A DNA stretch of 42,770 bases, taken from the IMG/VR virus record IMGVR_UViG_3300013137_001104, positions 1 to 42,770 of that record. One strand, 5' to 3'. This document shows, piece after piece, positions 5,023 through 42,023 of the stretch. The notes beneath the pieces were generated by a model, which saw nothing but the letters and a program-made list of their open reading frames with translations, was not told the DNA's origin and ran no database searches. A program made the translations under genes and the position numbers. This DNA comes from a virus. How positions within the stretch are numbered: position 1 is the first letter of the stretch; each line of letters begins with the position of its first letter.

Positions 5023-8000
5023 TTATTTTCCAACGATGACATCTTCAAGTCGTCGTCCGTCGGGCCATTGATAATACTTATTATCTTTGAAAAACTGAAT
5101 GATCTTTTGAACCTGATCCCGAGGAACAACCATCTTCTCAAAATTTTTGTCAAAGATCGAAAGCGATTGTTTAAAGTTGGTTTCGTTCCTACCCCTTTTC
5201 GCATTACCAACCCAATCATCGATGGTAGTTTTGCGGTTGCTTTTGATAAAGTCTTCCCCGCACTCACCAAAAACATCCCTGTTATACGAAAGCGCATCCA
5301 CTCTTGCCATCACATCAGACCGCCAAACCAACCCATAACCTTCATTTGATTTGGTTTGGCTAACGATGCGGGTGAATACGGAATTGCCACCCCCTGTCGC
5401 CATATCACTTTCTGGAGACGTACGACTCCAATCAAATCCTTTTCGGAATTTGTCAACAGTCGCAGTAAGATCCCCTCCATTATTAACGACCTTTTCAATC
5501 ATTACATCGTAGTCTGTTCCGGACCATAATTGATGTCGTATACGATACTTTTCCTTGAAATCCTCCCACTCTGGACCATTCAAATCAGGCCTGTATCTAT
5601 TCACCTTTCCGACATCAAATGCCGTCGCAATACCCTCTGGTTTATATTCAGAAACCTTAGTAATATCATACCCAGCCTTCTTGGACAACTCCCTTTGTAG
5701 ATACTCAATTTGCTTTTCTGCCGATTCATACGATGAAACATTGGAAATCAACGCTCGTCCAAAGTTGTCATTACGTGCATATGCTATCTGTTTGAGATAC
5801 ATCAATTCATCCTCAGCAGCAGTAGCACGTGTCAGATCGACCTTCAAACGGTCCTGAAGAACAGACATGATTCTTTCAATATCGATTGTCTGGTTGCCCG
5901 ATGTTTCTGCTCGCACCAATCCGCGGTGGGAGAACCAGATGTCGTCGGTGTTTGGCCAATACTTTACCTTGACACCATCAATCTCGGCCTCCAAATATTT
6001 ATCTTTCAATGCACGAATCACTTCATTTTTCTGTTGCGCAAATCCCTTTATATTTGTCTTTACATACATGGCGCCATCAGACTTAGTAAATGCAATCCCC
6101 GTTTCTATCTTTGTTACCTTGGGTGGAATGGCCTTTATGTTTCTAAACTTAGTTAATGCCTCTTTGAAGGTTGTATCATCGGGCATCTTGTATTTCCTGC
6201 CCTCTCCGGTTGTGATCACTTCTTTCAACCTTTCCAGCCAAGGTTTATAATGCTTCGCCATGGCGTCAACATCTGCATTGGAGAAAAGAGGATTGGCTTT
6301 TAGCGAATTGATTTCTTTTGCAAAAGCATCCAAAGTGGTTTTTGCTCGTTCAATATCCTTTGCTCGCAATGCTTCACCACCGCGAGATTGCATGGCAATA
6401 CCCCTGAAAGAATCCAAGATTGAAGAATGAAGTTCGTTTGTATTGTAAAAATGCGCCTTTTCAAAACTGGAGGCGTCAGCAATCGCATTCATTTTTTCTG
6501 CACCTTGACCCCGCAACTTGAATTGTACCGCAGTGACAGGCTTACCGGTAACATCCTTCTCATACCACACAAGGAACTGATGATCCTCAATCGCCTCTTT
6601 GTCGACTTTGATCACATACCCGTTAATTCTTGACGTTTCAATCGCCTGGTGCTCAAAATCGGAAACTGCATTTTCCAGATCCTTGGGCGCCTTTGCTATC
6701 GCCTCCTCAACCTTGATGTGGGGGAACTGCTCTTGAATGTATTTCTTCCGCGCAATTAACGTCTCTGCGAGGCGATCGCGCTCCACTTGATTAAGTGGTC
6801 CAAACTCATTAACGAGCTCCCTGATCTGTGAATCCGACACCGAGAGAACCTTGCGTGCTCCAGCATCAAGTTCCGATTGTTTGATTTTTTTGAACACAGC
6901 CGCTGCTTTTGGATTGGTTCTGCCATCTCTCATTGAAGATAATTCCAAAACCTTGTCGCTGAACTGACCGCCTTTGGCACCACCTTGTGCTCTGAATCTC
7001 AACGATCCGCCAACATCAACTCTGACGGCACGGATGCCATCTTTGATTTGAAGGTTATCGTAACTCATACCAACTACGTCCCAGTCACCAAGCCAGGCAT
7101 CAACAACGAAGTCATCATAGATACCCGCTCGCAAAGCCCCAGACTTCAGAAGTTCGGAATTTTTCTCAATCCCGTCAATGATTCTTGATGCAACCGCTTT
7201 CTCGCCATTGGCATTGATGATCTGAAGCTCTGGAACTTCAACGCCAGCAGCCTTGTAAAGCTTGCCCGCAAGGACTTCATTTCTCACCGTCTCCTCATTA
7301 CCTGGCATCTTGATATAGTAGCGCTCTGCAGGATTGTTGATGTTCCTATAAAACCCGCCCGTATTCGATCCCTCTTGTCCGGAATACTTTGTCATACTAT
7401 TGAAGTCAAGAGAGGCAGGCGCTTTCTCAACTACTGGTGACACCGGTTTAATATCAACACCGCTCAGTTGAGCAATTTTCTTGTCAATCTTTGCCTGCGC
7501 CTCCTCGGTTAAGAAATTGTAGGCATCCATCTGACCCTTCGATGCTGCCTTGCCCTTGGCAAGATTCTTGGTGTATTCACCTACAAGAGCAGACTGATTG
7601 GATTTGAACTTTGCAAGATCCTCCGGCAAGTCAAGATTATAAGCCGTCTTTCCCATCTCAACCGTTCCAGTCAATGCGCCTTGCTTCAATGGCGGTGGTA
7701 TGTATTCTGGAACTGCTTTTTCAGTTGCATTCAAACCCATTTGGCCCAATAGATCATCAACAGAGGCGGATGCCGCCTTTGTTGTGGTAAATTCAGAATA
7801 TCCTTTTGCGGATAATTGAGAGAGCGCCTTCTGTTCGACGGTTTTCTCCGCATACCCGAATTGAAACTCTGCGGGAACTTTTGACATCTGTTTTCCGGCC
7901 CATTCCTCAAAATACTTCGCCTTGGTGGATGCGGGTTGCTTTTCCCAGATATAGACGAGTTCCTCTTTTGTATACCCCGTTGTAGATTGCAGATCAATTT

Positions 8001-11000
8001 GATTAAGGTCGAGCCATCCTTTTTTTATCCCATCGTCAAGGAATTCCAATGCATGCGTCTCTGCCTGAGCATCGAGTCCCACAGGTTGGCGAACACCAAA
8101 CTTTCCAGAAAAATATTCTGGCCATGAAATTCCCATCGCATTCTTTTCCGAAGTTGCAATATCGGTCAGGCTCATTGTAAACTTATCGCTGATGGCATAT
8201 GGGTACACCTGGATAACATCAGGATCGATCTTCAATGCATAAAAATCGTCCATGGTATTGATTGAATGGTCAGGCAAACGCTCTAATTGCGACAAAGTTG
8301 TAATCTCATATTTGCTCACAGCTTTGCCTGCTGTAGATCCTGCCTTTATCTCCTCAACCATCTTGATGTCGGATGGACTGAGTAATTCAGCAGGAATCCT
8401 TGCCTTGGCAGCAACCCATTCCTCAAGAAATGGTTTCTTCAGAGAGGTATCAAGGCTTTGCCAGACCTTTGTGGCTTTACTTTTCCATGTAGAAGAAGCA
8501 AGTTCCCATTGATATTTTTTTTCTTCGTCTCCTGTAAATCCTTTCCATGGGGGCGTCTTTATCAAATCAGACAGATCGGTCATCTTTTTCTGTTCTATCA
8601 AATCCAAATCGCTCCAGAGTTTGCCATTGAGCACACCATCGTTTTTTGGCAGATCGGTTACCGCCTGCCACAATCTCTTTTCTGTTGGCCCCATCCATGC
8701 GGGTGGAGGAGAAACGCCAACGTTTGCCCATCCCTTCATGAGTGATTGTTTCACAGAGCTGTCCAACATATTCCAGAGTTCAGTTGACTGTTTTTTGAAC
8801 GCTGGTCCGGAATCAATCCATTCCCATGCTGGTGTTTTCATGTATCCATCAAGGATATTCAGAATATCCTTTTGTTTGACCGTCAGATCGGCAACCAACT
8901 TCCCGGAAATAGATCCAGGCTGACCTGGTATGCCTGTCTTTTTCTTGTAGGTCTCAATCGATTCTTGTAGCCACTTGACCTGGTCTTGAACTTTCATTAC
9001 TTCCAAATCGAATTTCAAGTGCTCCGCAAGCTGTTTAACCGCCTTGCCATCCGATGTGGCCAAAATATTTTTTTTCTCTGTAAGCGCTGTTGCTATTTGT
9101 TTGGCAAGACTTCCTTTTTTGTTTGGAACAAACATCGCCAGTTTCTCATAAGCACCCATCTCACCCCATCCGGGAACCTGGTTTCCAAGTTCATTGAATA
9201 TTGCCGTGCCTTTCTGGCTCCCAGAGAGAAGATTGGCAATCTTCTCTTTGGCAATCTTCTCCAATTCTTTTGCCTTTTCCATGACCGCCGCTGCTTTATC
9301 TTCTCCCTGCCAATACCCGAATCCGGATAGTTTTTTCAACTCTGCGTGTGCAACAGCTTCAGCAGACCCGGGCTTAATTCCCGCAAGATAAGATTCCCAG
9401 CTGTCCTGCGTTGGCTGTTTCATTATCTGATCTTCAAGCCACGATTTCACATCTTGGGGTTTCCACGTCGAGAGGATTTTTTGATTTGCTTCTGCCCAAA
9501 CTGTTTGTCCCTCTGGCATCTTGAGTAGCTTATCGATTTCCTGCAATGAAAACTTGATCTGTTTACCAAGATCACCATCGTAATATGCACGTTGTTCCCA
9601 CGGAGTCAGATCATCCCAATTGGATACCTGTTTCTGCATTGCAGAAAAGACATTTGGTGCCACCTTCTTCTCTGTCTCCAGGTATATCTTGGCATTGCTA
9701 TTGATCAAGTTCGCCTCCTCTTGAATGGCCTTGATCTTTCCTTCTGATCCAAGCGCTTTGAATACCGCACCCTTTACATTGCCGGGAATCGATGGTATAT
9801 CATTCATTGCAATAGATTCTGCAGATCCCGGTTTGATCAAATCAATGAAGAAATCGAATTTTGTGAATAGAGCTTCTTTCTCCGCCTGCACCGCTTTGAT
9901 CTTCACAAGAGGATCTGTCGCGTTGGTGATCGATCCTCTTTTGAATGCATTGACAAATGCCTGTCCTCCATCTGCCGTTGATGTAAGTGCAATCAAATCT
10001 GAATCGGCTTGCGTCTGTAATATTTTAACCTGTTCCGAAAGTTTAGAGTAGTAGGCGATTGGATCATCAATGAATTTGGTTTGGTTATATGCCTTGGAAC
10101 CGATTGTACCAATCTCACTTTGCCACACAGCTATCTGGTCTGCCGCGGCATTGTCCATCTCATACTTCAAATACTGGTACTGCGCGTTCTCACCAAGTTC
10201 CACCAAATTCGGGACTGCTGCGAGTTTCTTTTTTGCAATATCTGCCAATGTGGTATTACTCGCCAGCAATTTCTCTTTCAATGGCACAGCGATCTTGTCT
10301 TGATCGAGCAGCCGGAACCCAATCTTGAAATCACCCTTGCCGAGTTCGAGCGCCTTGGTATATTGTTCAATGAAATCCTGTGCGATCTTTTTATCGATTG
10401 CAGTATTGAGAAGATCGGTCAGTTGATTGGTTGGCACCAAATTGACCGCCTCTGATTCCCATCCCATCATGGTGGGAGAACCACCAGTCTTGACTCCAAC
10501 GTAATAACGAGTTGTCGAAGTCGTCTTCTGATAGTCCCCAAGATGATAGATCGGCCTTGCTTGCAATCCAGTTTCTTCAAAGACTTCCTTGATCGCAGTT
10601 GTTTGCAGATCAATAGGGCCTGGGGCATAAACCTTATCCCATGTGCCTTTGGGGAAAGTATTCTTGTATCCCCCGAATTGATTGGTCGGTGAATTGATCC
10701 AAATCTTGCCAGTCGCTTCATCGACGATAATCATTCCGGAAGAGTTTTTCAATCCCTGCGTTTCTTTCAATGCGGGTTGAAAGAAATCCCCGTACTTAAA
10801 TTCGAGCTTGCCATAGTTGGCTCCTCCTCCTTTGGCACCAGCAAAGGCACCTTCGATGGGATTATACAGGCCAGGAGGTAAAGATTGACCAGGGACGAAT
10901 TTTGCGACTTTTTCCGGGTCATTGATGGTCTTGAGCAGCCGCGCCTCTGCCCTGGCTGCTTTCTCTGCTTCGATTGATTGAACTGCATCCTTGTAAAACT

Positions 11001-12870
11001 GCGTGATCCCGCCTTTCTCTTGAAGGATCTTTCCCACTGTTGGGTCGGCGTTCTTCATCAATTCGATCTGTTGAGAAAACGCAGGCAGTGCTCCTGCTTC
11101 TGCAGCGGCAGTAACCATCAACGCTTCGAGCGCAACTTCCTTCTTTGCCAAGATGTCACCAAGGTTCGCCGCCAATTGTTTCAAGGTGAGAGGGTTGCCA
11201 GAGTTATCGATCAAATCCATCATGTCCAACTTATTCTCTGACCACATCTTCCACTTGCCTGGTCCGAGGACGCTTTTCTGGAATTCGACGGATTGAGTTT
11301 TCAGCCAATCATTGTATGTGAGGTTTGAGGGGACTGGACCATTCATCGATGCCCGTTCACCAGCCGGGATATTGTCAAGCTCTTTGATTTTGGAGGGGGG
11401 AAGTTGTGACTTGGGACCAGCCAATGCTGCCCATGATTTTGTAATCGGGATGGTTGTACTTCTGCAATTGTGGACAACAAATCCACGAGCGATATAACTT
11501 TCGTCTTCTTCAACACTAAAATTATAAAGCGTTCGGGCCTTTTTCAATCTCCATTTATTTATAACACAAATTTCATATTCGGAAAACTGGTAAAGTTCTT
11601 TATGGTTGCTCGCTATTCTGAGCACCTCTTTTTCAACACATCCAAAATTTTTATTTATTTGGTCTTCTCCAAATCTAAAAACTTGCCATCCCTCGCCTTC
11701 AATATTTTTTTGACGGATATTGTCTTTTTCTTTATCCTTATGCCAATACGATCCATCAACTCGCTTACACTTATGAGACAACAAAACAACCTTGTCCCCA
11801 CTCTTCAATTCTCCTGCACTAATCCATCCTTTATCAGTCAAAATGGGATGACCAGAAGTAACAGAAATGGGCAAATGACTTCCGCGGCCTTTCAATGCAA
11901 ATTTTACGACATTTGGCGTTTGAAGTGGCGTCCGAATAATTTCAGTAACATTTCTGAATCTTCCCTTATGAGTAAGAACAAAATCTCCGGTTTTTATGTT
12001 TCTGATTGCAACCCAACCTTTTGATGTGTAAATAGGAGTTTGTCCATCAATAAAACAATTAAAATGAAATGGCGGGCCTCCGGGGTATGGGAAACCATGA
12101 CCGATGGGCACAAGATCAAAAGTCCAACGTTTACCATCGAGTGCTCTGCACAACTCCGTCGTTCGATCATCAAGAGTCGCAACCACTTCAAACCCATCAA
12201 GGACGTCTACATTGGCTTTGTATGTTTCCAATCTGACTGCATTCGAAACCTGGGAAACGCTCGTCCTCACCAGCGCTGTTGCTTCTCTCTTGGTAACGCT
12301 CATGACTCCTGGGGTTGTTTTGGTGCCTCTGACTCGATTGATCAAATCACCAACGGTCTCTCCCTGCACAAGTCCTATCTGAATCGCTTGAGTACCTGCA
12401 GCCATCGATGCAGAGAGCTTTGCTTTTGTATCCGCGGATTGCTTCTCCCACCACTTCCCGATGGTATTACCTTGAATCATCGTATTTTCAACAATTGCCT
12501 TGACTCCTGAAGGAGTGAGATTGATATCAAATAGATCGGCGCCAACAGAACCATTGAATGAATCAACAACATTCTTGGCTTGCAAACCCCCCATCTTTTT
12601 CAACTGGGAATCAATGTGCTTGTTAATATTGCCATAACCGGAATCAAGGATTGCGCTGATTTCCTCGTTGAGCTTTTCAAGACGTGCCGTCTTGTATTTG
12701 GTCATCGTGGGAGCGGTTGGATCATTCTTGGCGATAGCAGCGACAATCTCGTCTTGGGTACCTTGCAAAAGAGATTGCACCCGCTTGTTCAGACTTGCGG
12801 AATATTGATCAAAATATACGCCATCCTTAACAGCAGCGTTGTAAATCTTGTCGGGTATATTTTCTGGCAT
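5023..12870 (-). CDS. Giant MuF 'polyvalent' head protein with intein, Nudix and kinase-like domains
   Basis: A 2615-residue protein just after the portal gene (3-nt gap). Residues 195-271 and 469-477 form a MuF/SPP1 gp7-like domain (VRTSVSQVSNAVR, LDDRTTELCRALDGKRW, PPFHFN joined to CRSTTIPI), split by an intein at 272-468. Residues about 705-815 are a Nudix domain: FPKGTWD and KEVFEETGL with E762, E765, E766. Residues 900-1700 are alpha-helical with repeats (KPGSAE at 1013-1018 and 1166-1171; tryptophan-rich TPxW...EW modules). Residues about 1825-2010 look like a HipA/PI3K-type kinase: YYIK (K1853), R1862-NE1864, and the VDVGGS motif at D1951. Residues 2440-2615 form a conserved-looking C-terminal domain (TGGGNSVFTRI, NETNF) whose function I cannot name. 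MuF polyvalent proteins are packaged and injected with DNA, so these domains may act in the host early in infection; that role is inference. Confidence 0.9.
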   Translation of the reverse strand: MPENIPDKIYNAAVKDGVYFDQYSASLNKRVQSLLQGTQDEIVAAIAKNDPTAPTMTKYKTARLEKLNEEISAILDSGYGNINKHIDSQLKKMGGLQAKNVVDSFNGSVGADLFDINLTPSGVKAIVENTMIQGNTIGKWWEKQSADTKAKLSASMAAGTQAIQIGLVQGETVGDLINRVRGTKTTPGVMSVTKREATALVRTSVSQVSNAVRLETYKANVDVLDGFEVVATLDDRTTELCRALDGKRWTFDLVPIGHGFPYPGGPPFHFNCFIDGQTPIYTSKGWVAIRNIKTGDFVLTHKGRFRNVTEIIRTPLQTPNVVKFALKGRGSHLPISVTSGHPILTDKGWISAGELKSGDKVVLLSHKCKRVDGSYWHKDKEKDNIRQKNIEGEGWQVFRFGEDQINKNFGCVEKEVLRIASNHKELYQFSEYEICVINKWRLKKARTLYNFSVEEDESYIARGFVVHNCRSTTIPITKSWAALAGPKSQLPPSKIKELDNIPAGERASMNGPVPSNLTYNDWLKTQSVEFQKSVLGPGKWKMWSENKLDMMDLIDNSGNPLTLKQLAANLGDILAKKEVALEALMVTAAAEAGALPAFSQQIELMKNADPTVGKILQEKGGITQFYKDAVQSIEAEKAARAEARLLKTINDPEKVAKFVPGQSLPPGLYNPIEGAFAGAKGGGANYGKLEFKYGDFFQPALKETQGLKNSSGMIIVDEATGKIWINSPTNQFGGYKNTFPKGTWDKVYAPGPIDLQTTAIKEVFEETGLQARPIYHLGDYQKTTSTTRYYVGVKTGGSPTMMGWESEAVNLVPTNQLTDLLNTAIDKKIAQDFIEQYTKALELGKGDFKIGFRLLDQDKIAVPLKEKLLASNTTLADIAKKKLAAVPNLVELGENAQYQYLKYEMDNAAADQIAVWQSEIGTIGSKAYNQTKFIDDPIAYYSKLSEQVKILQTQADSDLIALTSTADGGQAFVNAFKRGSITNATDPLVKIKAVQAEKEALFTKFDFFIDLIKPGSAESIAMNDIPSIPGNVKGAVFKALGSEGKIKAIQEEANLINSNAKIYLETEKKVAPNVFSAMQKQVSNWDDLTPWEQRAYYDGDLGKQIKFSLQEIDKLLKMPEGQTVWAEANQKILSTWKPQDVKSWLEDQIMKQPTQDSWESYLAGIKPGSAEAVAHAELKKLSGFGYWQGEDKAAAVMEKAKELEKIAKEKIANLLSGSQKGTAIFNELGNQVPGWGEMGAYEKLAMFVPNKKGSLAKQIATALTEKKNILATSDGKAVKQLAEHLKFDLEVMKVQDQVKWLQESIETYKKKTGIPGQPGSISGKLVADLTVKQKDILNILDGYMKTPAWEWIDSGPAFKKQSTELWNMLDSSVKQSLMKGWANVGVSPPPAWMGPTEKRLWQAVTDLPKNDGVLNGKLWSDLDLIEQKKMTDLSDLIKTPPWKGFTGDEEKKYQWELASSTWKSKATKVWQSLDTSLKKPFLEEWVAAKARIPAELLSPSDIKMVEEIKAGSTAGKAVSKYEITTLSQLERLPDHSINTMDDFYALKIDPDVIQVYPYAISDKFTMSLTDIATSEKNAMGISWPEYFSGKFGVRQPVGLDAQAETHALEFLDDGIKKGWLDLNQIDLQSTTGYTKEELVYIWEKQPASTKAKYFEEWAGKQMSKVPAEFQFGYAEKTVEQKALSQLSAKGYSEFTTTKAASASVDDLLGQMGLNATEKAVPEYIPPPLKQGALTGTVEMGKTAYNLDLPEDLAKFKSNQSALVGEYTKNLAKGKAASKGQMDAYNFLTEEAQAKIDKKIAQLSGVDIKPVSPVVEKAPASLDFNSMTKYSGQEGSNTGGFYRNINNPAERYYIKMPGNEETVRNEVLAGKLYKAAGVEVPELQIINANGEKAVASRIIDGIEKNSELLKSGALRAGIYDDFVVDAWLGDWDVVGMSYDNLQIKDGIRAVRVDVGGSLRFRAQGGAKGGQFSDKVLELSSMRDGRTNPKAAAVFKKIKQSELDAGARKVLSVSDSQIRELVNEFGPLNQVERDRLAETLIARKKYIQEQFPHIKVEEAIAKAPKDLENAVSDFEHQAIETSRINGYVIKVDKEAIEDHQFLVWYEKDVTGKPVTAVQFKLRGQGAEKMNAIADASSFEKAHFYNTNELHSSILDSFRGIAMQSRGGEALRAKDIERAKTTLDAFAKEINSLKANPLFSNADVDAMAKHYKPWLERLKEVITTGEGRKYKMPDDTTFKEALTKFRNIKAIPPKVTKIETGIAFTKSDGAMYVKTNIKGFAQQKNEVIRALKDKYLEAEIDGVKVKYWPNTDDIWFSHRGLVRAETSGNQTIDIERIMSVLQDRLKVDLTRATAAEDELMYLKQIAYARNDNFGRALISNVSSYESAEKQIEYLQRELSKKAGYDITKVSEYKPEGIATAFDVGKVNRYRPDLNGPEWEDFKEKYRIRHQLWSGTDYDVMIEKVVNNGGDLTATVDKFRKGFDWSRTSPESDMATGGGNSVFTRIVSQTKSNEGYGLVWRSDVMARVDALSYNRDVFGECGEDFIKSNRKTTIDDWVGNAKRGRNETNFKQSLSIFDKNFEKMVVPRDQVQKIIQFFKDNKYYQWPDGRRLEDVIVGK
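11467..12057 (-). other. Mini-intein in the MuF domain with nuclease remnant
   Basis: A 197-residue in-frame insertion (residues 272-468) splits the motif that in MuF domains reads PPFHxNCRSTT. It starts CFIDGQTPIY (block A), has the block B TxxH at T338-H341 (VTSGHPILT), and ends SYIARGFVVHN before +1 Cys469, so all class 1 splicing residues (Cys1, TxxH, HN, Cys+1) are present. Residues 371-404 (VDG, D383, then GWQVFRF) match the C-terminal half of a DUF559/Vsr-type nuclease but lack its catalytic core. It is therefore probably splicing-competent but no longer mobile by itself. Confidence 0.88.
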
Positions 12871-36076: not shown

Positions 36077-36544
36077 TCACCCTCTCGCGATTTTCTTGCG
36101 TTGCAGCCCCTCTCTCAATCCCACGTCAACATCTTTCAGTGAGTCCGATCGATTGATACTTGACGCCATAAAGAAGCCACGATCACGATCTACACAAAGA
36201 CGTTCCAGGGATTTCCCTTTTTCGACCATCGACCACTTGCCACCATCGATGATGTCGTACTTCTCCTCTGCATCAATCAATTCTTGGGAGACTCTGGCGT
36301 ATTCCGGATTGGTCCTCACCTCCGATTCAAGATCGGCCCCGGTCGGTTTTCTCCCCACCTGCTCGAATTTCTCCTTGGCTTCTTTGTACAACTTCGCCTT
36401 GAGTATCTTTCTGCGAAGGTAAATCTGTTTCTGTTGTTTGGATGCTGTCGCCGCAAGCCCAACCCATTGGTTATACAGGGCTGCCTGTCGGAGAACTTCG
36501 CCATCCAGATCATTCTCATTGATGTCAAAATCATTCTGCGCCAT
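36077..36544 (-). CDS. Helical protein upstream of SSB/RecA, possible recombination mediator
   Basis: A 155-residue, highly helical and charged protein (QAALYNQWVGLAATASKQQK, RRKILKAKLYKEAKEKFEQV, NPEYARVSQELIDAEEKYDI) with a DRDRGFFMASSINR segment. AAGGAGGTTAATC precedes the ATG and a candidate promoter lies further upstream. Size, composition and position next to SSB and RecA are like T4 UvsY, the mediator that loads UvsX on gp32-coated DNA. I see no sequence match strong enough to call it so. Confidence 0.7.
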   Translation of the reverse strand: MAQNDFDINENDLDGEVLRQAALYNQWVGLAATASKQQKQIYLRRKILKAKLYKEAKEKFEQVGRKPTGADLESEVRTNPEYARVSQELIDAEEKYDIIDGGKWSMVEKGKSLERLCVDRDRGFFMASSINRSDSLKDVDVGLREGLQRKKIARG

Positions 36545-36563
36545 GATTAACCTCCTTGGATCA

Positions 36564-36575
36564 ATTATATGTCAC
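36564..36575 (-). promoter_or_regulatory. Candidate phage promoter motif GTGACATATAAT
   Basis: Minus-strand GTGACATATAAT lies after the clamp loader stop and 19 nt before the next ATG, just upstream of AAGGAGGT. It is the reference copy of the intergenic motif and would start transcription of the SSB/RecA/nuclease block. No clear -35 box. Confidence 0.48.
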
Positions 36576-36600
36576 GATGGGGAATCACATCCATTTTCTT

Positions 36601-38691
36601 TCAATGAGCAGCCATGTAACAAGCATACGTGAACCCTGCCTTTCCCGATTGAATGAAGGAGTCCAGAAAACCCTCCATGATGATCGCAGCGTCTTTATTT
36701 CCAGAATTCAGAAGCACCGCATTCATATAACCCAGGATCGCATAGCGCATCTTCTCAACCTTGTCTGTGTCCTTTTCGCCTTCGTCTTTGGTCAAAAGCA
36801 CTTTCAAAATCGGTGCGATTGTCTTCCAATCGTGCTTTTCCAACAGAGCCTTGCAAAGATCAACCACGGTCTTTTCGTTGAAGCTATAATCGACCACAGC
36901 GTTGATCAATTCATCATCGTCCTGAATATCGATCACAGAGTCCAAAATCACCAATGCCTGCCTCGGCGAACCTCCGCAAACCTTGCAGATTTCATCCAGC
37001 GCGGCTGACGGGAAGTTGTTGATTTTTTCCTTCTCCAGCACATTTTTCAACAGCAGTTTTATATCCCAGCCAAGCAATGATTGGACCTGAAAGGTAGTGC
37101 ACCTGGTTCTAACCGCCTTGATCAATTTTTCCGGGTCTGTTGTGCAGAGAATCAGGTACACATAGTCGGGGGTATCTTCGAGCAACTTTAATAACGCATT
37201 TTGTGCATCGTTTGTAAGTTTGTGGCAATTATGGACAAGACATCCATTTGCGTAATAGGAAGGATGTCCATCTATTTCAAGGTCGTAGAATTCGACATAC
37301 CCTTGATTTTTCTCTGTATCACCGATAATACCGACGAAGGATCCATCATTATTTCCTTGTTTGTAAACCTCAACACTGTCCACCCTAATTCTGTCAATTT
37401 GGTCGTCTTTTTCTGATCGAGCAACATATTTTCTTTCAATAGATGCCCAATCCCGTCGACCTCTATTGCAAGTTTCAAAATCTCGTTTCCGATATCTACC
37501 TTGTAACAAGTGGGAAAGCCACTCTTTACCCTTGAACTTGAGAATGTTTTGACAGGAACTTCCATCGGCCATCCTAACGCGCTTGCCAACAAATATTGAG
37601 CAGGCGGTATCTTTCCATTCCCTCCACGTTCTCCAGACCAAATATGCAAAGTGCCCTTGATTCTTTTCGTCGCTTTCCCTTTCTCGATAATCATTGGATC
37701 GTGAAATGGATTCTTTATCTTCATCCGTCGTGAGCGTTCTCTGGATAATTTTTCTTTTATTTCTGTAGAAAGATTCAAATGGGAATTGCTGATCTTCAAC
37801 GCAGTTTCCTCCGTACATATATGAGGATAATGAACTTCCCTCCATGCACAAACACATTTGTTGGAACAAAATCTTTTCTGATTCTTTTTGTGAGTCACAA
37901 AATAGGTTATTAAATTCCCGCACCATTCGCAAGGCCTTTTTGCAGTAATACCCAACCCTGCTTCTTTGTTCCTTAATTTCTGTCCGCAGCGTTTGGAACA
38001 TGTGCGTTGAGTATCCTTTAGCTCTTTGAACTCTGCCAAACATATCTCGCATATCTTCATCTTTTTTTGCCTCCAAGGGTGATCTGTTGGAATTCATTAT
38101 ATCACTCTTTCTGCTAAAAATAAAGATATTCTTATCCAGATCAATCGCCTTTTCCCATCCAAATTCAGTAAAAAACAGATGGTCTTTGCTACAGACAATG
38201 TCTGGCCCTTCTGATAATTTGACCTTTACAACCCTGTCTGTTGCAACCTTGTTTTTGAAAACATTCTTAACTTTACATTTTCCGGTCATATTATACACAA
38301 TATCTCCCACTTGAACCGTCTCTATTTTCCTTTTACCAAGCGGAGTCGAAACTATAGTCCCAGAAGCAAAACATTCATCCAAGAGGAACATCTTGATACT
38401 TCCCTGGTGAGGATAATACGCAGCATCTTCGACCAATTCTCGGATGGAGTCAATCCCCCTAACATTTGCAGAATTCAACTCCCTAAAATCCAAATCCGAG
38501 CATCCCAACTGATTCTTGATAATTCTCGCGATTGTTGTCTTGCCGCAACCAGATGGACCAGAGAAGAGAAAAGAGTGCGGGATTCCATCTTTACGTGACA
38601 TGATACTTTTGATGGAATCGATTGCGCTTTTGTTGCCAACCACATCGTCCAATGTTGTTGGACGGTATTTCAAATGAAGTGCCTGTGTCAT
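36601..38691 (-). CDS. DnaX-like clamp loader ATPase, interrupted by an intein
   Basis: A 696-codon ORF: a 314-residue AAA+ clamp loader after removal of a 382-residue intein. Extein motifs are LKYRPTTLDDVVGNKSAIDS (start), Walker A FSGPSGCGKTTIARI (about 43-57), Walker B MFLLDE (101-106), cut by the intein directly after DE, then CHKLTNDAQNALLKLLEDTP. Sensor 1 is LILCTTDPEKL, the SRC-like arginine finger is VRTRCTTFQ, and lid/collar is KVCGGSPRQALVILD. It opens the sliding clamp for loading at primer ends. The ATG overlaps the polymerase stop (ATGA). Without splicing the ATPase cannot form. No tau-like extension is present. Confidence 0.94.
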   Translation of the reverse strand: MTQALHLKYRPTTLDDVVGNKSAIDSIKSIMSRKDGIPHSFLFSGPSGCGKTTIARIIKNQLGCSDLDFRELNSANVRGIDSIRELVEDAAYYPHQGSIKMFLLDECFASGTIVSTPLGKRKIETVQVGDIVYNMTGKCKVKNVFKNKVATDRVVKVKLSEGPDIVCSKDHLFFTEFGWEKAIDLDKNIFIFSRKSDIMNSNRSPLEAKKDEDMRDMFGRVQRAKGYSTHMFQTLRTEIKEQRSRVGYYCKKALRMVREFNNLFCDSQKESEKILFQQMCLCMEGSSLSSYMYGGNCVEDQQFPFESFYRNKRKIIQRTLTTDEDKESISRSNDYRERESDEKNQGHFAYLVWRTWREWKDTACSIFVGKRVRMADGSSCQNILKFKGKEWLSHLLQGRYRKRDFETCNRGRRDWASIERKYVARSEKDDQIDRIRVDSVEVYKQGNNDGSFVGIIGDTEKNQGYVEFYDLEIDGHPSYYANGCLVHNCHKLTNDAQNALLKLLEDTPDYVYLILCTTDPEKLIKAVRTRCTTFQVQSLLGWDIKLLLKNVLEKEKINNFPSAALDEICKVCGGSPRQALVILDSVIDIQDDDELINAVVDYSFNEKTVVDLCKALLEKHDWKTIAPILKVLLTKDEGEKDTDKVEKMRYAILGYMNAVLLNSGNKDAAIIMEGFLDSFIQSGKAGFTYACYMAAH
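37228..38373 (-). other. Intein in the clamp loader Walker B motif
   Basis: Residues 107-488 of the clamp loader ORF. Block A is CFASGTIVSTPLGKRK with ETVQVGDIVYN; block B is DIVCSKDHLFF with H171 (SxxH in place of TxxH). The C-terminal blocks are VEFYDLEIDGHPSYYANG and CLVHN before +1 Cys489. Cys1, His, Asn and Cys+1 of a class 1 intein are in place. About 255 residues between the splicing blocks (211-465) have no recognisable in-frame domain, because that DNA encodes an endonuclease in another frame. Confidence 0.92.
37272..38060 (-). CDS. Vsr/DUF559-type homing endonuclease nested out of frame inside the intein
   Basis: A 262-residue protein read in the +1 frame relative to the clamp loader ORF. 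Two Cys4 fingers (C4, C7, C21, C25 and C44, C47, C65, C69) are followed by a NUMOD3-like DNA-binding segment (KNPFHDPMIIEKGKATKR, 116-133). A PD-(D/E)XK-related nuclease domain follows: YKVDIGNEI (D189), LAIEVDGIGHL (E200, D202, H206), D215, GWTVLRF (226-232). GGAGG lies 9 nt before ATG 38060, inside the intein coding sequence. It ends just before the C-terminal splicing block. The layout matches the Vsr-like endonucleases described with fractured genes and I-Bth0305I. It would cut intein-less alleles to spread the intein. Confidence 0.88.
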   Translation of the reverse strand: MKICEICLAEFKELKDTQRTCSKRCGQKLRNKEAGLGITAKRPCEWCGNLITYFVTHKKNQKRFCSNKCVCAWREVHYPHICTEETALKISNSHLNLSTEIKEKLSRERSRRMKIKNPFHDPMIIEKGKATKRIKGTLHIWSGERGGNGKIPPAQYLLASALGWPMEVPVKTFSSSRVKSGFPTCYKVDIGNEILKLAIEVDGIGHLLKENMLLDQKKTTKLTELGWTVLRFTNKEIMMDPSSVLSVIQRKIKGMSNSTTLK

Positions 38692-41600
38692 ATTAACCCT
38701 CCCAAAGTCTCTATTTTTTCAACAAAGTTTTTTACGCCTGCTTGGAATTCCGATTTGTGCTCGGGGTTTCTCAATACTGCCGCCGGGTGAATGCACCAGC
38801 AAATCCACATGCCATATTTTTCTGACCATTCTGTCTTTCCATTGTGTTTAGTGATGCCTCCATCCTCTCCCTTGAAGTATTTTAAGGAACTGTTTCCGAA
38901 CGCAAGCGATAATTTTATCTCGGCTTGTTTCAGTTCCTCGTCCAACCATTTGCTGCACGCCCTCAAGTGGGATTCATTTGGTGTCTTGATCGATCCCGGA
39001 TAACACTTCGCACAATTGGTTACGTGAAAGAATCTACGGACCATATCGTACTTCGCAAACTCTTTCCAAACCAGATCGCCAGCACGGCCAACGAATCCTT
39101 TCCCCTCAACATCCTCGTCACCTCCAGGAGCCTCGCCGATGATCGCGATGTTATATCTGCCTGGCGATGGCATCACAGGGCGGCGGCACTGACCTCTCAA
39201 TGCACAAGCATCACAATACAACAAATCGGGATTCTGGAACTTGGTCGTCTCACGAATCATCCTGATCCTGCCGCCTGGCGGAAGTGAGAGATTCAAAATT
39301 GAGTCAAGATCCTTTGGCACAGATGCAAACCCAAGTGTGTTACACAAAACAGGGAATTCATCTCGTTTGTCCTGTTTCACCTCAAATGTAAAATACTTGG
39401 AAAGATCCTCATCGGGAGTGTCGCCAATGGCGCCAACAGATCGCAATATTTTCTCGATCTTTCCACCCCCTTTTTGTGCAACTCCCAGATTGAAAAAGCC
39501 CTGTGTTGACTGCACTCGATAGTTCGCACAATCAAATGCTGTTTTATCACCGATGCCTTTGATCTCTATGAATGGTATATACAAGCACCCCTCTTTCACA
39601 ACCCATGACTTTGCTTCTGAAACACCAACTTTCGGAAGAACAACTTTCAACCCAAGCCGGCGTGCCTCTTTGACGATCTCTTCTTTCTTTCCGTCGGATC
39701 CAAACGACAGATTGGCACAAATAAACTCGGCAGGAAAATACAGTTTGCACCACGCACACCAATAGGCGATCATTGCATATTCGATGGAATGGGATCGGTT
39801 GAATGAATAGTTGGAATGCTTCTCCAGAGCATCCCAAAATTCCAATGCTTCTTTCTCTGATAGGGTGTCCTCTTTTTTGCAGCCGTCAACAAACATCTGT
39901 TTGTATTCCTCAAACGCCTTGATGTCTCTCTTCTTTGCGATGATCTTTCGGATTTTGTCCGCAGTGGCATACGATAATCCCGCCACCTGATTGATCACTT
40001 GCATAACCTGTTCTTGATACACGATTATCCCGAAGGTATCCTTGGTTATGCGCTCGTATGCGCGATGTTTCTTTTTCCATTTGGCGCCATGTTTTCTCTT
40101 GGTGAAATCAGCCGTCATACCAGAATCGGCAGGTCCAGGTCTGACCAGAGCAATCACGTCGCTCATGAGGCCGAATGTATTTATGCCGATCTCTTTACAA
40201 AGTTTGGTTGTGGAATAAGTATTGAATTGAAAGACCCCAACTGTCTCGCCTTTGGATAGCATTTCAAAGACCTGTTGGTTATCCAATTCGATCTTTTCAA
40301 AGACGATCTTCTTTCCCCGGTTCACCTCGATCAATCTCCGCGTCTCATTGAGAATCGACAATGTATTGAGCCCAAGGATGTCCAACTTCATCAACCCGAC
40401 ATACTCTGCGTCATCCTTGTCCCAATTCACAACCTCCTGATTCGATCTCACAGACAAATTGCATCTCGTGCCCAGAGTCAAATCCTCCCCAGATACAACC
40501 AAGGCAGCGGCATGCTGGCCACATCCTCTGACCTGCCCTTCCAACTTCATTGCCGCGGCAACAACGTCAGGGTATTCTCTCTTAAACTGCTGGCCCTCCG
40601 GAGTCATGGATGCTTTTTCGATCGTTGTGTTGTCGGACTGTTCATCATCCTCAATACTCTTTGCAAACTCGTCAACACGGAAGTATGGAGTATCAAAAAC
40701 TCTGGCAACATCTCTGATCGCGGCACGTCCTTTCATATCCATAAAGGTCGAAACGGATGCGATATTATTCTTGCCGTACATCTCCTCCAGGTGCCCTCTG
40801 ATCAATGGTCTTTTTACATCTTCAAAATCCAGATCAATATCTGGATAATCAATGCGATCCTCTGCAATGAATCTTGAGAAGAGCAGGTTGAATTGGATTG
40901 GATCGACTGTTGTAATCCCGATCAAGTAGGCAATCAAACTACCACCGACCGATCCTCTCCCAGGTCCTATCATAATGTTGTTCTTTCGACACCATTCAGT
41001 AAGTTCCCACACGACGAGAAAATAGCGCACGAAGTTCTTGCGTCTGATCATGTCAAACTCTTCGTTGAACCGGTCAATATAAGTCTGGCTCCATTCTGGC
41101 ACGCCAAAGATTCTTTCGTACCCATCGCAACAGAGCTTTTTCAGAAACGCATCCTCTGGTTCATTTTTCATCAAAATGGATGGCAAGAAGATGTCGTGTT
41201 TTTTGATTTTGAATCCACAACACTTCTCTGCAACATCTGCAGTATTGCTCATGGCCAAAAGACACTGCACTTTGCTCAAGATCCCCTGTTTACCAAATGC
41301 GGTCTTCATCTGCTCTGCCGATCGCATGAACAGGTCTTTCGTTTCAAATCGGAAGCGATCTTTGTCTGTCCACTTCGCCTTGGTCTGAATAGCCAACAAA
41401 ACCTCATGAACCAGAGAATCATCCTCCCGCACATAATGGCAATCATTCGTCGCAATAAGAGGCAGTTCCATCTGTGCCGATAGATCGATACACTTGCGAT
41501 TTACGGACTCCTGATCGGGAAGTATATGGGGCATAACCTCCAAATAAACATCACCTGTGTACCTCTCGCTCAACATCCTGATGAAAGCAATTCCGCGAGG

Positions 41601-42023
41601 ATCGACAATGCACGAGAATCCGCAACCAGTCATGAACACAAGACCCGCGCCATGAACAAGGAGAGTTTCAAAATCCGTCCTGGGTTTATAATAGAATCCG
41701 TGAAGATTCGCCTTGGTCAAGACGTGACTGAGGTTTACAAATCCCTCCTCATTCTTGATCAAAACAGTGATGTGGAATCGTTTTTCTTTTGGAACTTTCA
41801 CTGAGGCATCCGGAACCAGATATAACTCGCACCCAAGAACGGGTTTGATTCCTTGTTTGTCTGCCTCTCTCTGAAATCTGATCAATCCGTCAATATTGCC
41901 GTGGTTAGTGATCCCGCAAAATTCTTGCCCGAGTTCTTTCGCTCTTTGCACATAATCTTTTGAACTGCCATAACCATCAAGTATACTGAATTCGTTGTGT
42001 ACATGTAGATGGCAAAATCTCAT
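38688..42023 (-). CDS. DNA polymerase III alpha (DnaE) fused to a uracil-DNA glycosylase domain
   Basis: A 1111-residue replicative polymerase. The PHP domain (1-210) starts FCHLHVHNEFSILDGYGSSK, with ITNHGNIDG. GPGRGSVGGSLIAYLIGI (353-370) and YPDIDLDFEDVKR (393-405) hold two palm aspartates, and VGLMKLDILGL the third. HSNYSFNRSHSIEYAMIAYW is the fingers motif. Helix-hairpin-helix lies near 840 (IKGIGDKTAFD). Instead of the usual OB and tau-binding C-domain, residues about 936-1111 form a family 4-type uracil-DNA glycosylase: four cysteines (YCDACALRGQC, NCAKC, RACSK), the catalytic loop IIGEAPGGDEDVEGKGFVGR, and IHPAAVL. It should copy DNA and monitor uracil. The start follows GAGGAAG. Confidence 0.94.
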   Translation of the reverse strand: MRFCHLHVHNEFSILDGYGSSKDYVQRAKELGQEFCGITNHGNIDGLIRFQREADKQGIKPVLGCELYLVPDASVKVPKEKRFHITVLIKNEEGFVNLSHVLTKANLHGFYYKPRTDFETLLVHGAGLVFMTGCGFSCIVDPRGIAFIRMLSERYTGDVYLEVMPHILPDQESVNRKCIDLSAQMELPLIATNDCHYVREDDSLVHEVLLAIQTKAKWTDKDRFRFETKDLFMRSAEQMKTAFGKQGILSKVQCLLAMSNTADVAEKCCGFKIKKHDIFLPSILMKNEPEDAFLKKLCCDGYERIFGVPEWSQTYIDRFNEEFDMIRRKNFVRYFLVVWELTEWCRKNNIMIGPGRGSVGGSLIAYLIGITTVDPIQFNLLFSRFIAEDRIDYPDIDLDFEDVKRPLIRGHLEEMYGKNNIASVSTFMDMKGRAAIRDVARVFDTPYFRVDEFAKSIEDDEQSDNTTIEKASMTPEGQQFKREYPDVVAAAMKLEGQVRGCGQHAAALVVSGEDLTLGTRCNLSVRSNQEVVNWDKDDAEYVGLMKLDILGLNTLSILNETRRLIEVNRGKKIVFEKIELDNQQVFEMLSKGETVGVFQFNTYSTTKLCKEIGINTFGLMSDVIALVRPGPADSGMTADFTKRKHGAKWKKKHRAYERITKDTFGIIVYQEQVMQVINQVAGLSYATADKIRKIIAKKRDIKAFEEYKQMFVDGCKKEDTLSEKEALEFWDALEKHSNYSFNRSHSIEYAMIAYWCAWCKLYFPAEFICANLSFGSDGKKEEIVKEARRLGLKVVLPKVGVSEAKSWVVKEGCLYIPFIEIKGIGDKTAFDCANYRVQSTQGFFNLGVAQKGGGKIEKILRSVGAIGDTPDEDLSKYFTFEVKQDKRDEFPVLCNTLGFASVPKDLDSILNLSLPPGGRIRMIRETTKFQNPDLLYCDACALRGQCRRPVMPSPGRYNIAIIGEAPGGDEDVEGKGFVGRAGDLVWKEFAKYDMVRRFFHVTNCAKCYPGSIKTPNESHLRACSKWLDEELKQAEIKLSLAFGNSSLKYFKGEDGGITKHNGKTEWSEKYGMWICWCIHPAAVLRNPEHKSEFQAGVKNFVEKIETLGGLI

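What the first reader, a model, noticed from the sequence alone, without database searches (positions are those of the whole stretch)
37228..38373. Homing endonuclease gene nested in an alternate reading frame inside a contiguous intein
Seen directly: the clamp loader frame is open from Cys1 to the terminal HN/Cys of the intein, while the same strand in the +1 frame encodes a complete 262-residue protein with two Cys4 fingers, a NUMOD3-like segment and a Vsr/DUF559 nuclease core (D189, E200, D202). It has GGAGG 9 nt before its ATG and spans almost exactly the gap between the splicing blocks. With 263 codons, the chance of no stop in an unconstrained second frame at equal base use is roughly (61/64)^263, about 3 in a million, so both frames appear to be maintained. 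Known inteins carry the endonuclease in frame, and fractured genes carry Vsr-like endonucleases between split intein halves; a dual-coded form would be an intermediate or third solution.
Basis: partly seen in the sequence, partly recalled or inferred. Interest (0 to 1): 0.92.

Follow-up and report, generated by a model that had tools for sequence, protein, structure and literature searches.

The report
Endonuclease gene hidden inside an intein
In this phage and in more than 50 diverged relatives, one stretch of DNA is read in two frames, one giving an uninterrupted self-splicing protein insert and the other a separate DNA-cutting enzyme thought to spread that insert, and the data show that both readings are kept by natural selection.

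Summary
On the minus strand, a clamp-loader gene (36601-38691) holds a complete intein (37228-38373). A 262-aa Vsr/DUF559-type endonuclease gene (37272-38060) lies inside it in the +1 frame, with GGAGG 9 nt before its ATG. It is neither chance nor a sequencing error. Every relative of the nuclease that I could read has the host frame open across it. Over 53 lineages (<70% identical), 0 host-frame stops occur where synonymous-codon shuffles predict 588; the third frame has 1137 (expected 1057). Inside the overlap, substitutions fall on the nuclease's third codon position; outside it, on the host's. Most of the host-frame linker is merely kept open, but at the nuclease's GWxVLRF motif and C-terminal tail the intein frame is also constrained, so conserved elements of two proteins share nucleotides. 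49 of 51 copies sit exactly after Walker-B Asp-Glu (DE^C) in clamp loaders and SF2/SNF2 helicases. Corynebacterium phages phi673 (occupied) and phi674 (empty) show a homing-like footprint. Splicing, nuclease expression and cleavage remain inferred. The nearest published case (ShiLan, PMC11855218) lacks a splicing domain. A 2025 preprint on 'non-canonical' phage inteins could not be read, so priority is uncertain.

The parts
36601..38691 (-). Host ORF: phage clamp loader (DnaX/RFC small-subunit-like AAA+ ATPase) with a contiguous intein, 696 aa
   Evidence: DNA_pol3_delta2 3.2e-19, AAA 8.5e-11, dnaX_nterm 1.5e-50, Intein_splicing 6.8e-10
38374..38691 (-). N-extein, ending in Walker B ...FLLDE
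37228..38373 (-). Intein, 382 aa in the host frame (Cys1 to terminal His-Asn)
   Evidence: Cys1, block-B His and terminal Asn invariant in 51 homologues; AF2 plus Foldseek Hint fold
38104..38373 (-). Intein N-terminal splicing half (residues 1-90)
   Evidence: AF2 pLDDT 93-98
37399..38103 (-). Host-frame linker (residues 91-325) that runs over most of the nuclease gene; kept open, mostly without amino-acid constraint of its own
   Evidence: AF2 pLDDT about 38-76, below 50 over 180-199 and 221-307
38070..38074 (-). GGAGG Shine-Dalgarno-like site, 9 nt before the nuclease ATG
   Evidence: family-wide SD enrichment
37272..38060 (-). Nested homing-endonuclease gene, 262 aa, in the +1 frame of the host gene
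37986..38051 (-). First Cys4 finger (C4, C7, C21, C25)
   Evidence: Sequence; alignment A1
37854..37931 (-). Second Cys4 finger (C44, C47, C65, C69)
   Evidence: C44, C47, C69 invariant in 38 relatives, C65 nearly so
37305..37505 (-). Vsr/DUF559 (EDxHD-like) nuclease core, residues 186-252
   Evidence: Pfam DUF559 1.1e-11; Foldseek 3r3p I-Bth0305I, 3hrl, 1vsr
37365..37398 (-). Doubly constrained segment: nuclease GWTVLRF (frame +1) over intein strand RIRVDSVEVYK (host frame)
   Evidence: Host-frame conservation beyond synonymous shuffles z=12.1, third frame 5.8
37228..37299 (-). Intein C-terminal block (VEFYDLEIDGHPSYYANGCLVHN)
36601..37227 (-). C-extein, starting CHKL (Cys+1)

Best explanation
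This is a mobile intein whose homing-endonuclease gene is out of frame and independently initiated. The host mRNA carries two overlapping genes on one strand. Ribosomes that start at the clamp loader read straight through: N-extein, splicing half, a linker of about 235 residues, splicing half, C-extein. The folded splicing halves then cut out the intein and restore the ATPase at its Walker B motif. Other ribosomes start inside the intein, at a Shine-Dalgarno site and ATG near the end of the N-terminal splicing half, read the +1 frame, and make a free zinc-finger/Vsr-like (EDxHD-type) endonuclease. That enzyme cuts intein-less copies of the Walker-B coding sequence, so that repair copies the whole element in. 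Host-frame stops are removed by silent changes in the nuclease: in this register every possible stop needs a nuclease codon ending in T, and T to C is always silent. Shown computationally: both ORFs, selection on both frames, the register, the exact insertion site, occupied/empty/mini alleles, and intein DNA more similar than the flanks in close pairs. Inferred: protein splicing, expression from the internal start, cleavage, and homing as an event.
For: 53 nuclease lineages below 70% identity: 0 host-frame stops against 588 expected; third frame 1137 against 1057. Among NNY codons, T-ending ones before AAN/AGN/GAN: 0 of 840, against 2350 of 3597 elsewhere. Substitution positions flip: exteins and splicing halves vary mostly at host position 3 (0.51-0.60), the overlap at host position 1 = nuclease position 3 (0.47-0.53). 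Host-frame amino-acid conservation beyond expectation peaks at the shared strand and C-terminal tail. Cys1, block-B His and terminal Asn invariant in 51; 50 of 51 match Intein_splicing; 49 of 51 sit at DE^C. SD signal at nuclease starts, p about 4e-12. AF2: nuclease pLDDT 89, splicing halves mostly 92-98, linker low; Foldseek finds inteins and I-Bth0305I. phi673 and phi674 are 99.1% identical over the 1200 nt spanning the junction, with 7 mismatches in the first 78 nt on the right flank, turning Val+1 into Cys+1. Intein DNA exceeds flank identity in nearly all close pairs, e.g. 98.7% vs 83%.
Against: No transcript, ribosome-profiling, splicing or cleavage data. About 14% of starts lack an SD match (7 of 50). 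Some members end in SN or GN instead of HN. The third frame also shows raised conservation at the nuclease C-terminus (z 5.8), so part of the z of 12.1 reflects nucleotide-level conservation. Foldseek support for the nuclease is modest (E 4.8e-3, probability 1.00).
Confidence: 0.88

Rival explanations
1. Chance: the host frame happens to be open over the nuclease (or the reverse), with no selection for dual coding.
For: A single locus alone has a small but non-zero chance of being open.
Against: 0 of 588 expected stops over 53 diverged lineages while the third frame is full of stops; 0 of 840 forbidden T-ending codons.
Confidence: 0.01
2. The nuclease is made not by internal initiation but by ribosomal frameshifting, as a fusion to the N-terminal splicing half.
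For: The nuclease is always in the same register relative to the host; A-runs precede some starts.
Against: SD sites are enriched at the nuclease ATG, and in the window a lone GGAGG precedes the ATG. No shared slippery motif was looked for systematically.
Confidence: 0.06
3. Split-intein use: the C-terminal half is translated from its own start and trans-splices (a 'fractured' gene in the making), and the open linker is unused.
For: Relatives of the splicing fold (gp41-1) are split inteins.
Against: An unused linker would gather stops, and none does. In the nine gp41-1 fractured loci read, the host frame closes right after IntN, and none of the 50 loci fetched holds this nuclease family.
Confidence: 0.03
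4. The host-frame linker is itself a functional domain under protein-level selection.
For: Weak excess conservation over the zinc-finger and spacer region (z about 4).
Against: No excess in the nuclease core (z 0.5-0.9); linker pLDDT largely below 75; substitutions follow the nuclease frame. A 150-aa mini-intein without the linker occupies the same helicase site in Vibrio phages.
Confidence: 0.04

Closest known systems
ShiLan element (out-of-frame HNH endonuclease in a mycobacteriophage methylase; Arsenault, Gosselin, Gogarten 2025, PMC11855218)
   Same: An endonuclease gene is hidden out of frame within an insertion that keeps the host frame open; signs of homing.
   Different: The authors find no intein or intron; the insert is thought to stay in the protein. 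HNH type, third frame, GTG start, no RBS, non-essential host. Here a complete intein is present, the nuclease is Vsr-like, in the second frame, usually with ATG and SD, in replication ATPases.
Fractured genes with split inteins and Vsr-like endonucleases (Dassa et al. 2009, NAR 37:2560; paper not held, recalled)
   Same: Inteins in phage replication genes with a separately translated endonuclease gene between the splicing halves.
   Different: There the host frame is closed and the halves trans-splice; gp41-1 loci tested have a stop right after IntN and a different nuclease. Here the frame is open and contiguous.
Canonical inteins with in-frame homing endonuclease (e.g. PI-SceI)
   Same: Hint splicing domain interrupted by a homing endonuclease at the usual position.
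   Different: There the nuclease is a domain of the intein polypeptide; here it is a different protein from another frame.
I-Bth0305I / EDxHD homing endonucleases (PDB 3r3p; group I intron in a phage recA; paper not held, recalled)
   Same: Vsr-like catalytic domain; top Foldseek match and a weak profile match.
   Different: Intron-borne; here in an intein, out of frame.
In-frame DUF559 inteins of Mu-F-like head proteins (window 11467-12057; L152, L155, L163)
   Same: Related nuclease (zinc finger, DUF559-type core) inside a phage intein.
   Different: In the host frame, i.e. canonical; truncated in the window.

Membership tests
Class 1 cis-splicing intein | Cys/Ser at position 1, block-B His, C-terminal Asn and Cys/Ser/Thr +1 | tested here: met
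   Cys1, block-B His and terminal Asn invariant in 51; Cys+1 in at least 90%; penultimate His replaced by Ser or Gly in some
Class 1 cis-splicing intein | Hint fold | tested here: met
   Pfam 50 of 51; AF2 plus Foldseek to gp41-1 and DnaB inteins, 1.3e-7
Class 1 cis-splicing intein | Protein splicing activity | not testable with these tools
   Needs expression
Canonical endonuclease-bearing intein | Endonuclease in the same reading frame as the splicing domain | tested here: not met
   Nuclease always in the +1 frame
Fractured gene / split intein | Host frame closed between the two halves; separate C-half ORF | tested here: not met
   Host frame open in all relatives read; contrast gp41-1 loci
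Vsr-like (EDxHD) homing endonuclease | Vsr/DUF559 fold with conserved acidic/His active site | tested here: met
   DUF559 1.1e-11; D189, E200, D202, H206, D215 invariant; Foldseek 3r3p, 3hrl, 1vsr
Vsr-like (EDxHD) homing endonuclease | Site-specific cleavage at the intein-less allele | not testable with these tools
   Indirect only: empty/occupied pair with clustered flank changes
ShiLan-type out-of-frame insertion | No splicing domain in the insert | tested here: not met
   Splicing domain present
Group I/II intron | Intron RNA in the insert | tested here: not met
   No Rfam match in 36400-38900

The most novel reading that the evidence does not exclude
A third general architecture for mobile inteins: an uninterrupted cis-splicing intein whose homing endonuclease is a separate gene overprinted in the +1 frame. 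It is maintained across a broad family in phage replication ATPases, with conserved elements of both proteins sharing nucleotides and the register dictated by the genetic code. Not described before in this form.
Probability: 0.65. Interest if true: 0.87.

Novelty: new variant of a known kind. Interest (0 to 1): 0.8.

Why it matters
Inteins are normally thought to carry the endonuclease as an in-frame domain, or to lose it. Here the nuclease is freed from the splicing protein without breaking the host gene, by overprinting. The system separates expression of nuclease and host gene, gives a clear natural case of two conserved folds written over each other, and explains why such nucleases escape annotation: in the eight cultured-phage records opened, the gene is drawn as a single helicase-position CDS. 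It also makes questions testable in cultured phages: does overprinting slow nuclease decay, how is the internal start used, and how are inteins targeted to Walker B motifs across unrelated ATPases? The pair phi673 (occupied) and phi674 (empty), on the laboratory host Corynebacterium glutamicum, is nearly isogenic in this gene.

Tried and rejected
Chance openness: rejected by the synonymous-shuffle test. Sequencing indel: rejected by the many relatives and by cultured phage genomes. Fractured gene/split intein: relatives are never closed; 50 gp41-1 loci hold no member of this nuclease family. Intron: no Rfam match. Functional linker domain: no excess conservation in the middle. Literature searches found only the ShiLan paper as a near match. 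Papers I wanted but that are not held: Dassa 2009, Gorbalenya 1998 (Non-canonical inteins), Gosselin 2025 preprint 10.1101/2025.01.02.630785, and the I-Bth0305I paper. A relative of the window's own clamp loader with an empty site was not sought; the empty-site evidence comes from the helicase-borne members.

Full report
WHAT IS THERE. On the minus strand the window (a 42,770-base virus record) encodes a 696-aa clamp loader (36601-38691) interrupted right after the Walker B residues Asp-Glu by an intein of 382 residues (37228-38373). A 262-aa ORF (37272-38060) lies within the intein in the +1 frame. The host frame scores as clamp loader plus intein splicing domain; the nested ORF scores as DUF559. 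GGAGG stands 9 nt before the nested ATG.

IT IS A FAMILY. Searching with the nested protein gave relatives in viral contigs, bacterial genome contigs and 40 phage records. All records opened or read show the same layout: nuclease ORF inside a host ORF that stays open, always in the same register. In the eight cultured-phage records opened (Vibrio phages 1.088.O, 1.194.O, K391, CP-T1, 159E43-1b and 104E43.1; Pseudomonas MR14; Corynebacterium phi673) the gene is drawn as one CDS and the nuclease is not annotated. Hosts are SF2 helicases, SNF2-type helicases and clamp loaders; 49 of 51 insertions fall exactly at DE^C, the other two a few residues away.

BOTH FRAMES ARE UNDER SELECTION. For 53 lineages below 70% identity I shuffled synonymous codons within each nuclease gene. 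Host-frame stops: observed 0, expected 588. Third frame: observed 1137, expected 1057. In the observed register a host-frame stop arises only when a nuclease codon ending in T precedes AAN, AGN or GAN. Among T/C-ending codons in that context 0 of 840 end in T, against 2350 of 3597 elsewhere. Dynamic programming shows that the observed register never forces a stop, whereas the other sense register would force on average 3.4 unavoidable stops per nuclease and be stop-free in only 3 of 53. So the register is either inherited from one origin, or the only one that leaves the nuclease sequence free; probably both. Substitutions in pairs of relatives confirm it: exteins and splicing halves change mainly at host codon position 3 (51-60%), while in the overlap 47-53% of changes fall on host position 1, which is nuclease position 3. 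For Vibrio phages 1.088.O and 1.194.O the counts in the nuclease core are 30, 2 and 0 at host positions 1, 2 and 3.

WHERE THE TWO PROTEINS SHARE CONSERVED LETTERS. Against synonymous shuffles that also avoid stops, host-frame amino-acid similarity is not raised over the nuclease core (z 0.5-0.9), weakly raised over the zinc-finger and spacer region (z about 4), and strongly raised at LGWTVLRF (z 12.1) and at the C-terminal tail (z 9.1), using 32 sequences below 50% identity. The third frame reaches only 5.8 and 5.9 there (larger set). In the intein model this segment is a confident strand (residues 326-336, RIRVDSVEVYK), while residues 180-199 and 221-307 of the linker are below pLDDT 50. So most of the linker is just kept open, but the nuclease's GWxVLRF motif and a structural strand of the intein are written over each other.

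HOW IT PROBABLY WORKS. Splicing residues are intact family-wide: Cys1, block-B His and terminal Asn invariant, and the fold matches solved inteins, best gp41-1. The nuclease model is confident (pLDDT 88.9); its closest solved structures are the catalytic domain of I-Bth0305I, a DUF559 protein and Vsr. The ATG nearest upstream of the first zinc finger carries a better Shine-Dalgarno match than internal nuclease ATGs or host-frame ATGs (p about 4e-12 and 6e-12). I therefore infer two translation starts on one message: one makes the spliced ATPase, the other a free nuclease. No expression data were available.

MOBILITY. In 15 of 16 close pairs the intein DNA is as similar as or more similar than the flanking exteins, often by 10-18 points (98.7% against 82.7/83.2%; 95.8% against 78.6/77.0%); the exception, L058/L061, is essentially identical throughout. 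Corynebacterium phage phi674 has an empty site; phi673 has the element; they agree at 99.1% over the 1200 nt spanning the junction, and seven mismatches lie in the first 78 nt of the right flank, turning Val+1 into the Cys+1 needed for splicing. That is the footprint of co-conversion from a donor. In Vibrio phages the same helicase site occurs empty, with the nested-nuclease intein, or with a 150-aa mini-intein of a different sequence lineage. Nuclease, splicing-domain and extein distances correlate (Mantel r 0.73-0.80), so nuclease and intein largely travel together. No lineage with the nuclease outside an intein turned up.

COMPARISON WITH WHAT IS KNOWN. It works like a mobile intein, but fails the in-frame criterion of canonical endonuclease inteins and the closed-frame criterion of fractured genes. 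In the nine gp41-1 split-intein loci I read, the host frame stops right after IntN, and none of the 50 gp41-1 loci holds this nuclease. [quoted passage not shown] That paper cites a 2025 preprint on 'non-canonical architecture' of actinobacteriophage inteins and Gorbalenya 1998 in connection with overlapping frames; neither was available, so I claim a new variant, not priority. The window also shows the canonical alternative: its second intein, in a Mu-F-like head protein, carries a truncated DUF559 stretch in the host frame, and relatives have the full in-frame version.

LIMITS. Splicing, internal initiation, cleavage and homing are inferred. Homologues come from pattern-based scans and are not a full census. 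Shuffling tests treat related lineages as separate; at 30-50% protein identity silent sites should be near saturation, but this was not modelled on a tree. The AF2 alignments are shallow (38 and 42 rows).

Noticed in passing
window 11467-12057 (-), in ORF 5023-12870: A second intein, in a 2615-aa Mu-F-like head protein, carries a truncated DUF559 nuclease stretch in the host frame; relatives L152, L155, L163 have the fuller in-frame nuclease and L168, L169 an HNH-like one.
   Followed up: partly
window 38688-42023 (-): DnaE-type DNA polymerase III alpha subunit fused to a C-terminal uracil-DNA-glycosylase superfamily domain (PF03167, 4e-21).
   Followed up: no
L147 (Vibrio phage PS65A.1) and L148 (Vibrio phage 13VV501A): The same helicase carries two inteins, one at the Walker A motif (GGGK^C...HN^T) and one at Walker B.
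   Followed up: partly
L145, L146, L150 (Vibrio phages K389, K459, 268E42.1): A 150-aa mini-intein without any endonuclease occupies the same site at which close relatives have the nested-nuclease intein or an empty site.
   Followed up: partly
L055 versus L051: A small deletion removes the nuclease C-terminus and shifts the host frame; possibly a decaying copy or an assembly error.
   Followed up: no
L058 and L061: The host ORF is open over the whole 7,663-base locus (2,554 codons), a very large SNF2-type phage protein with the nested element.
   Followed up: no
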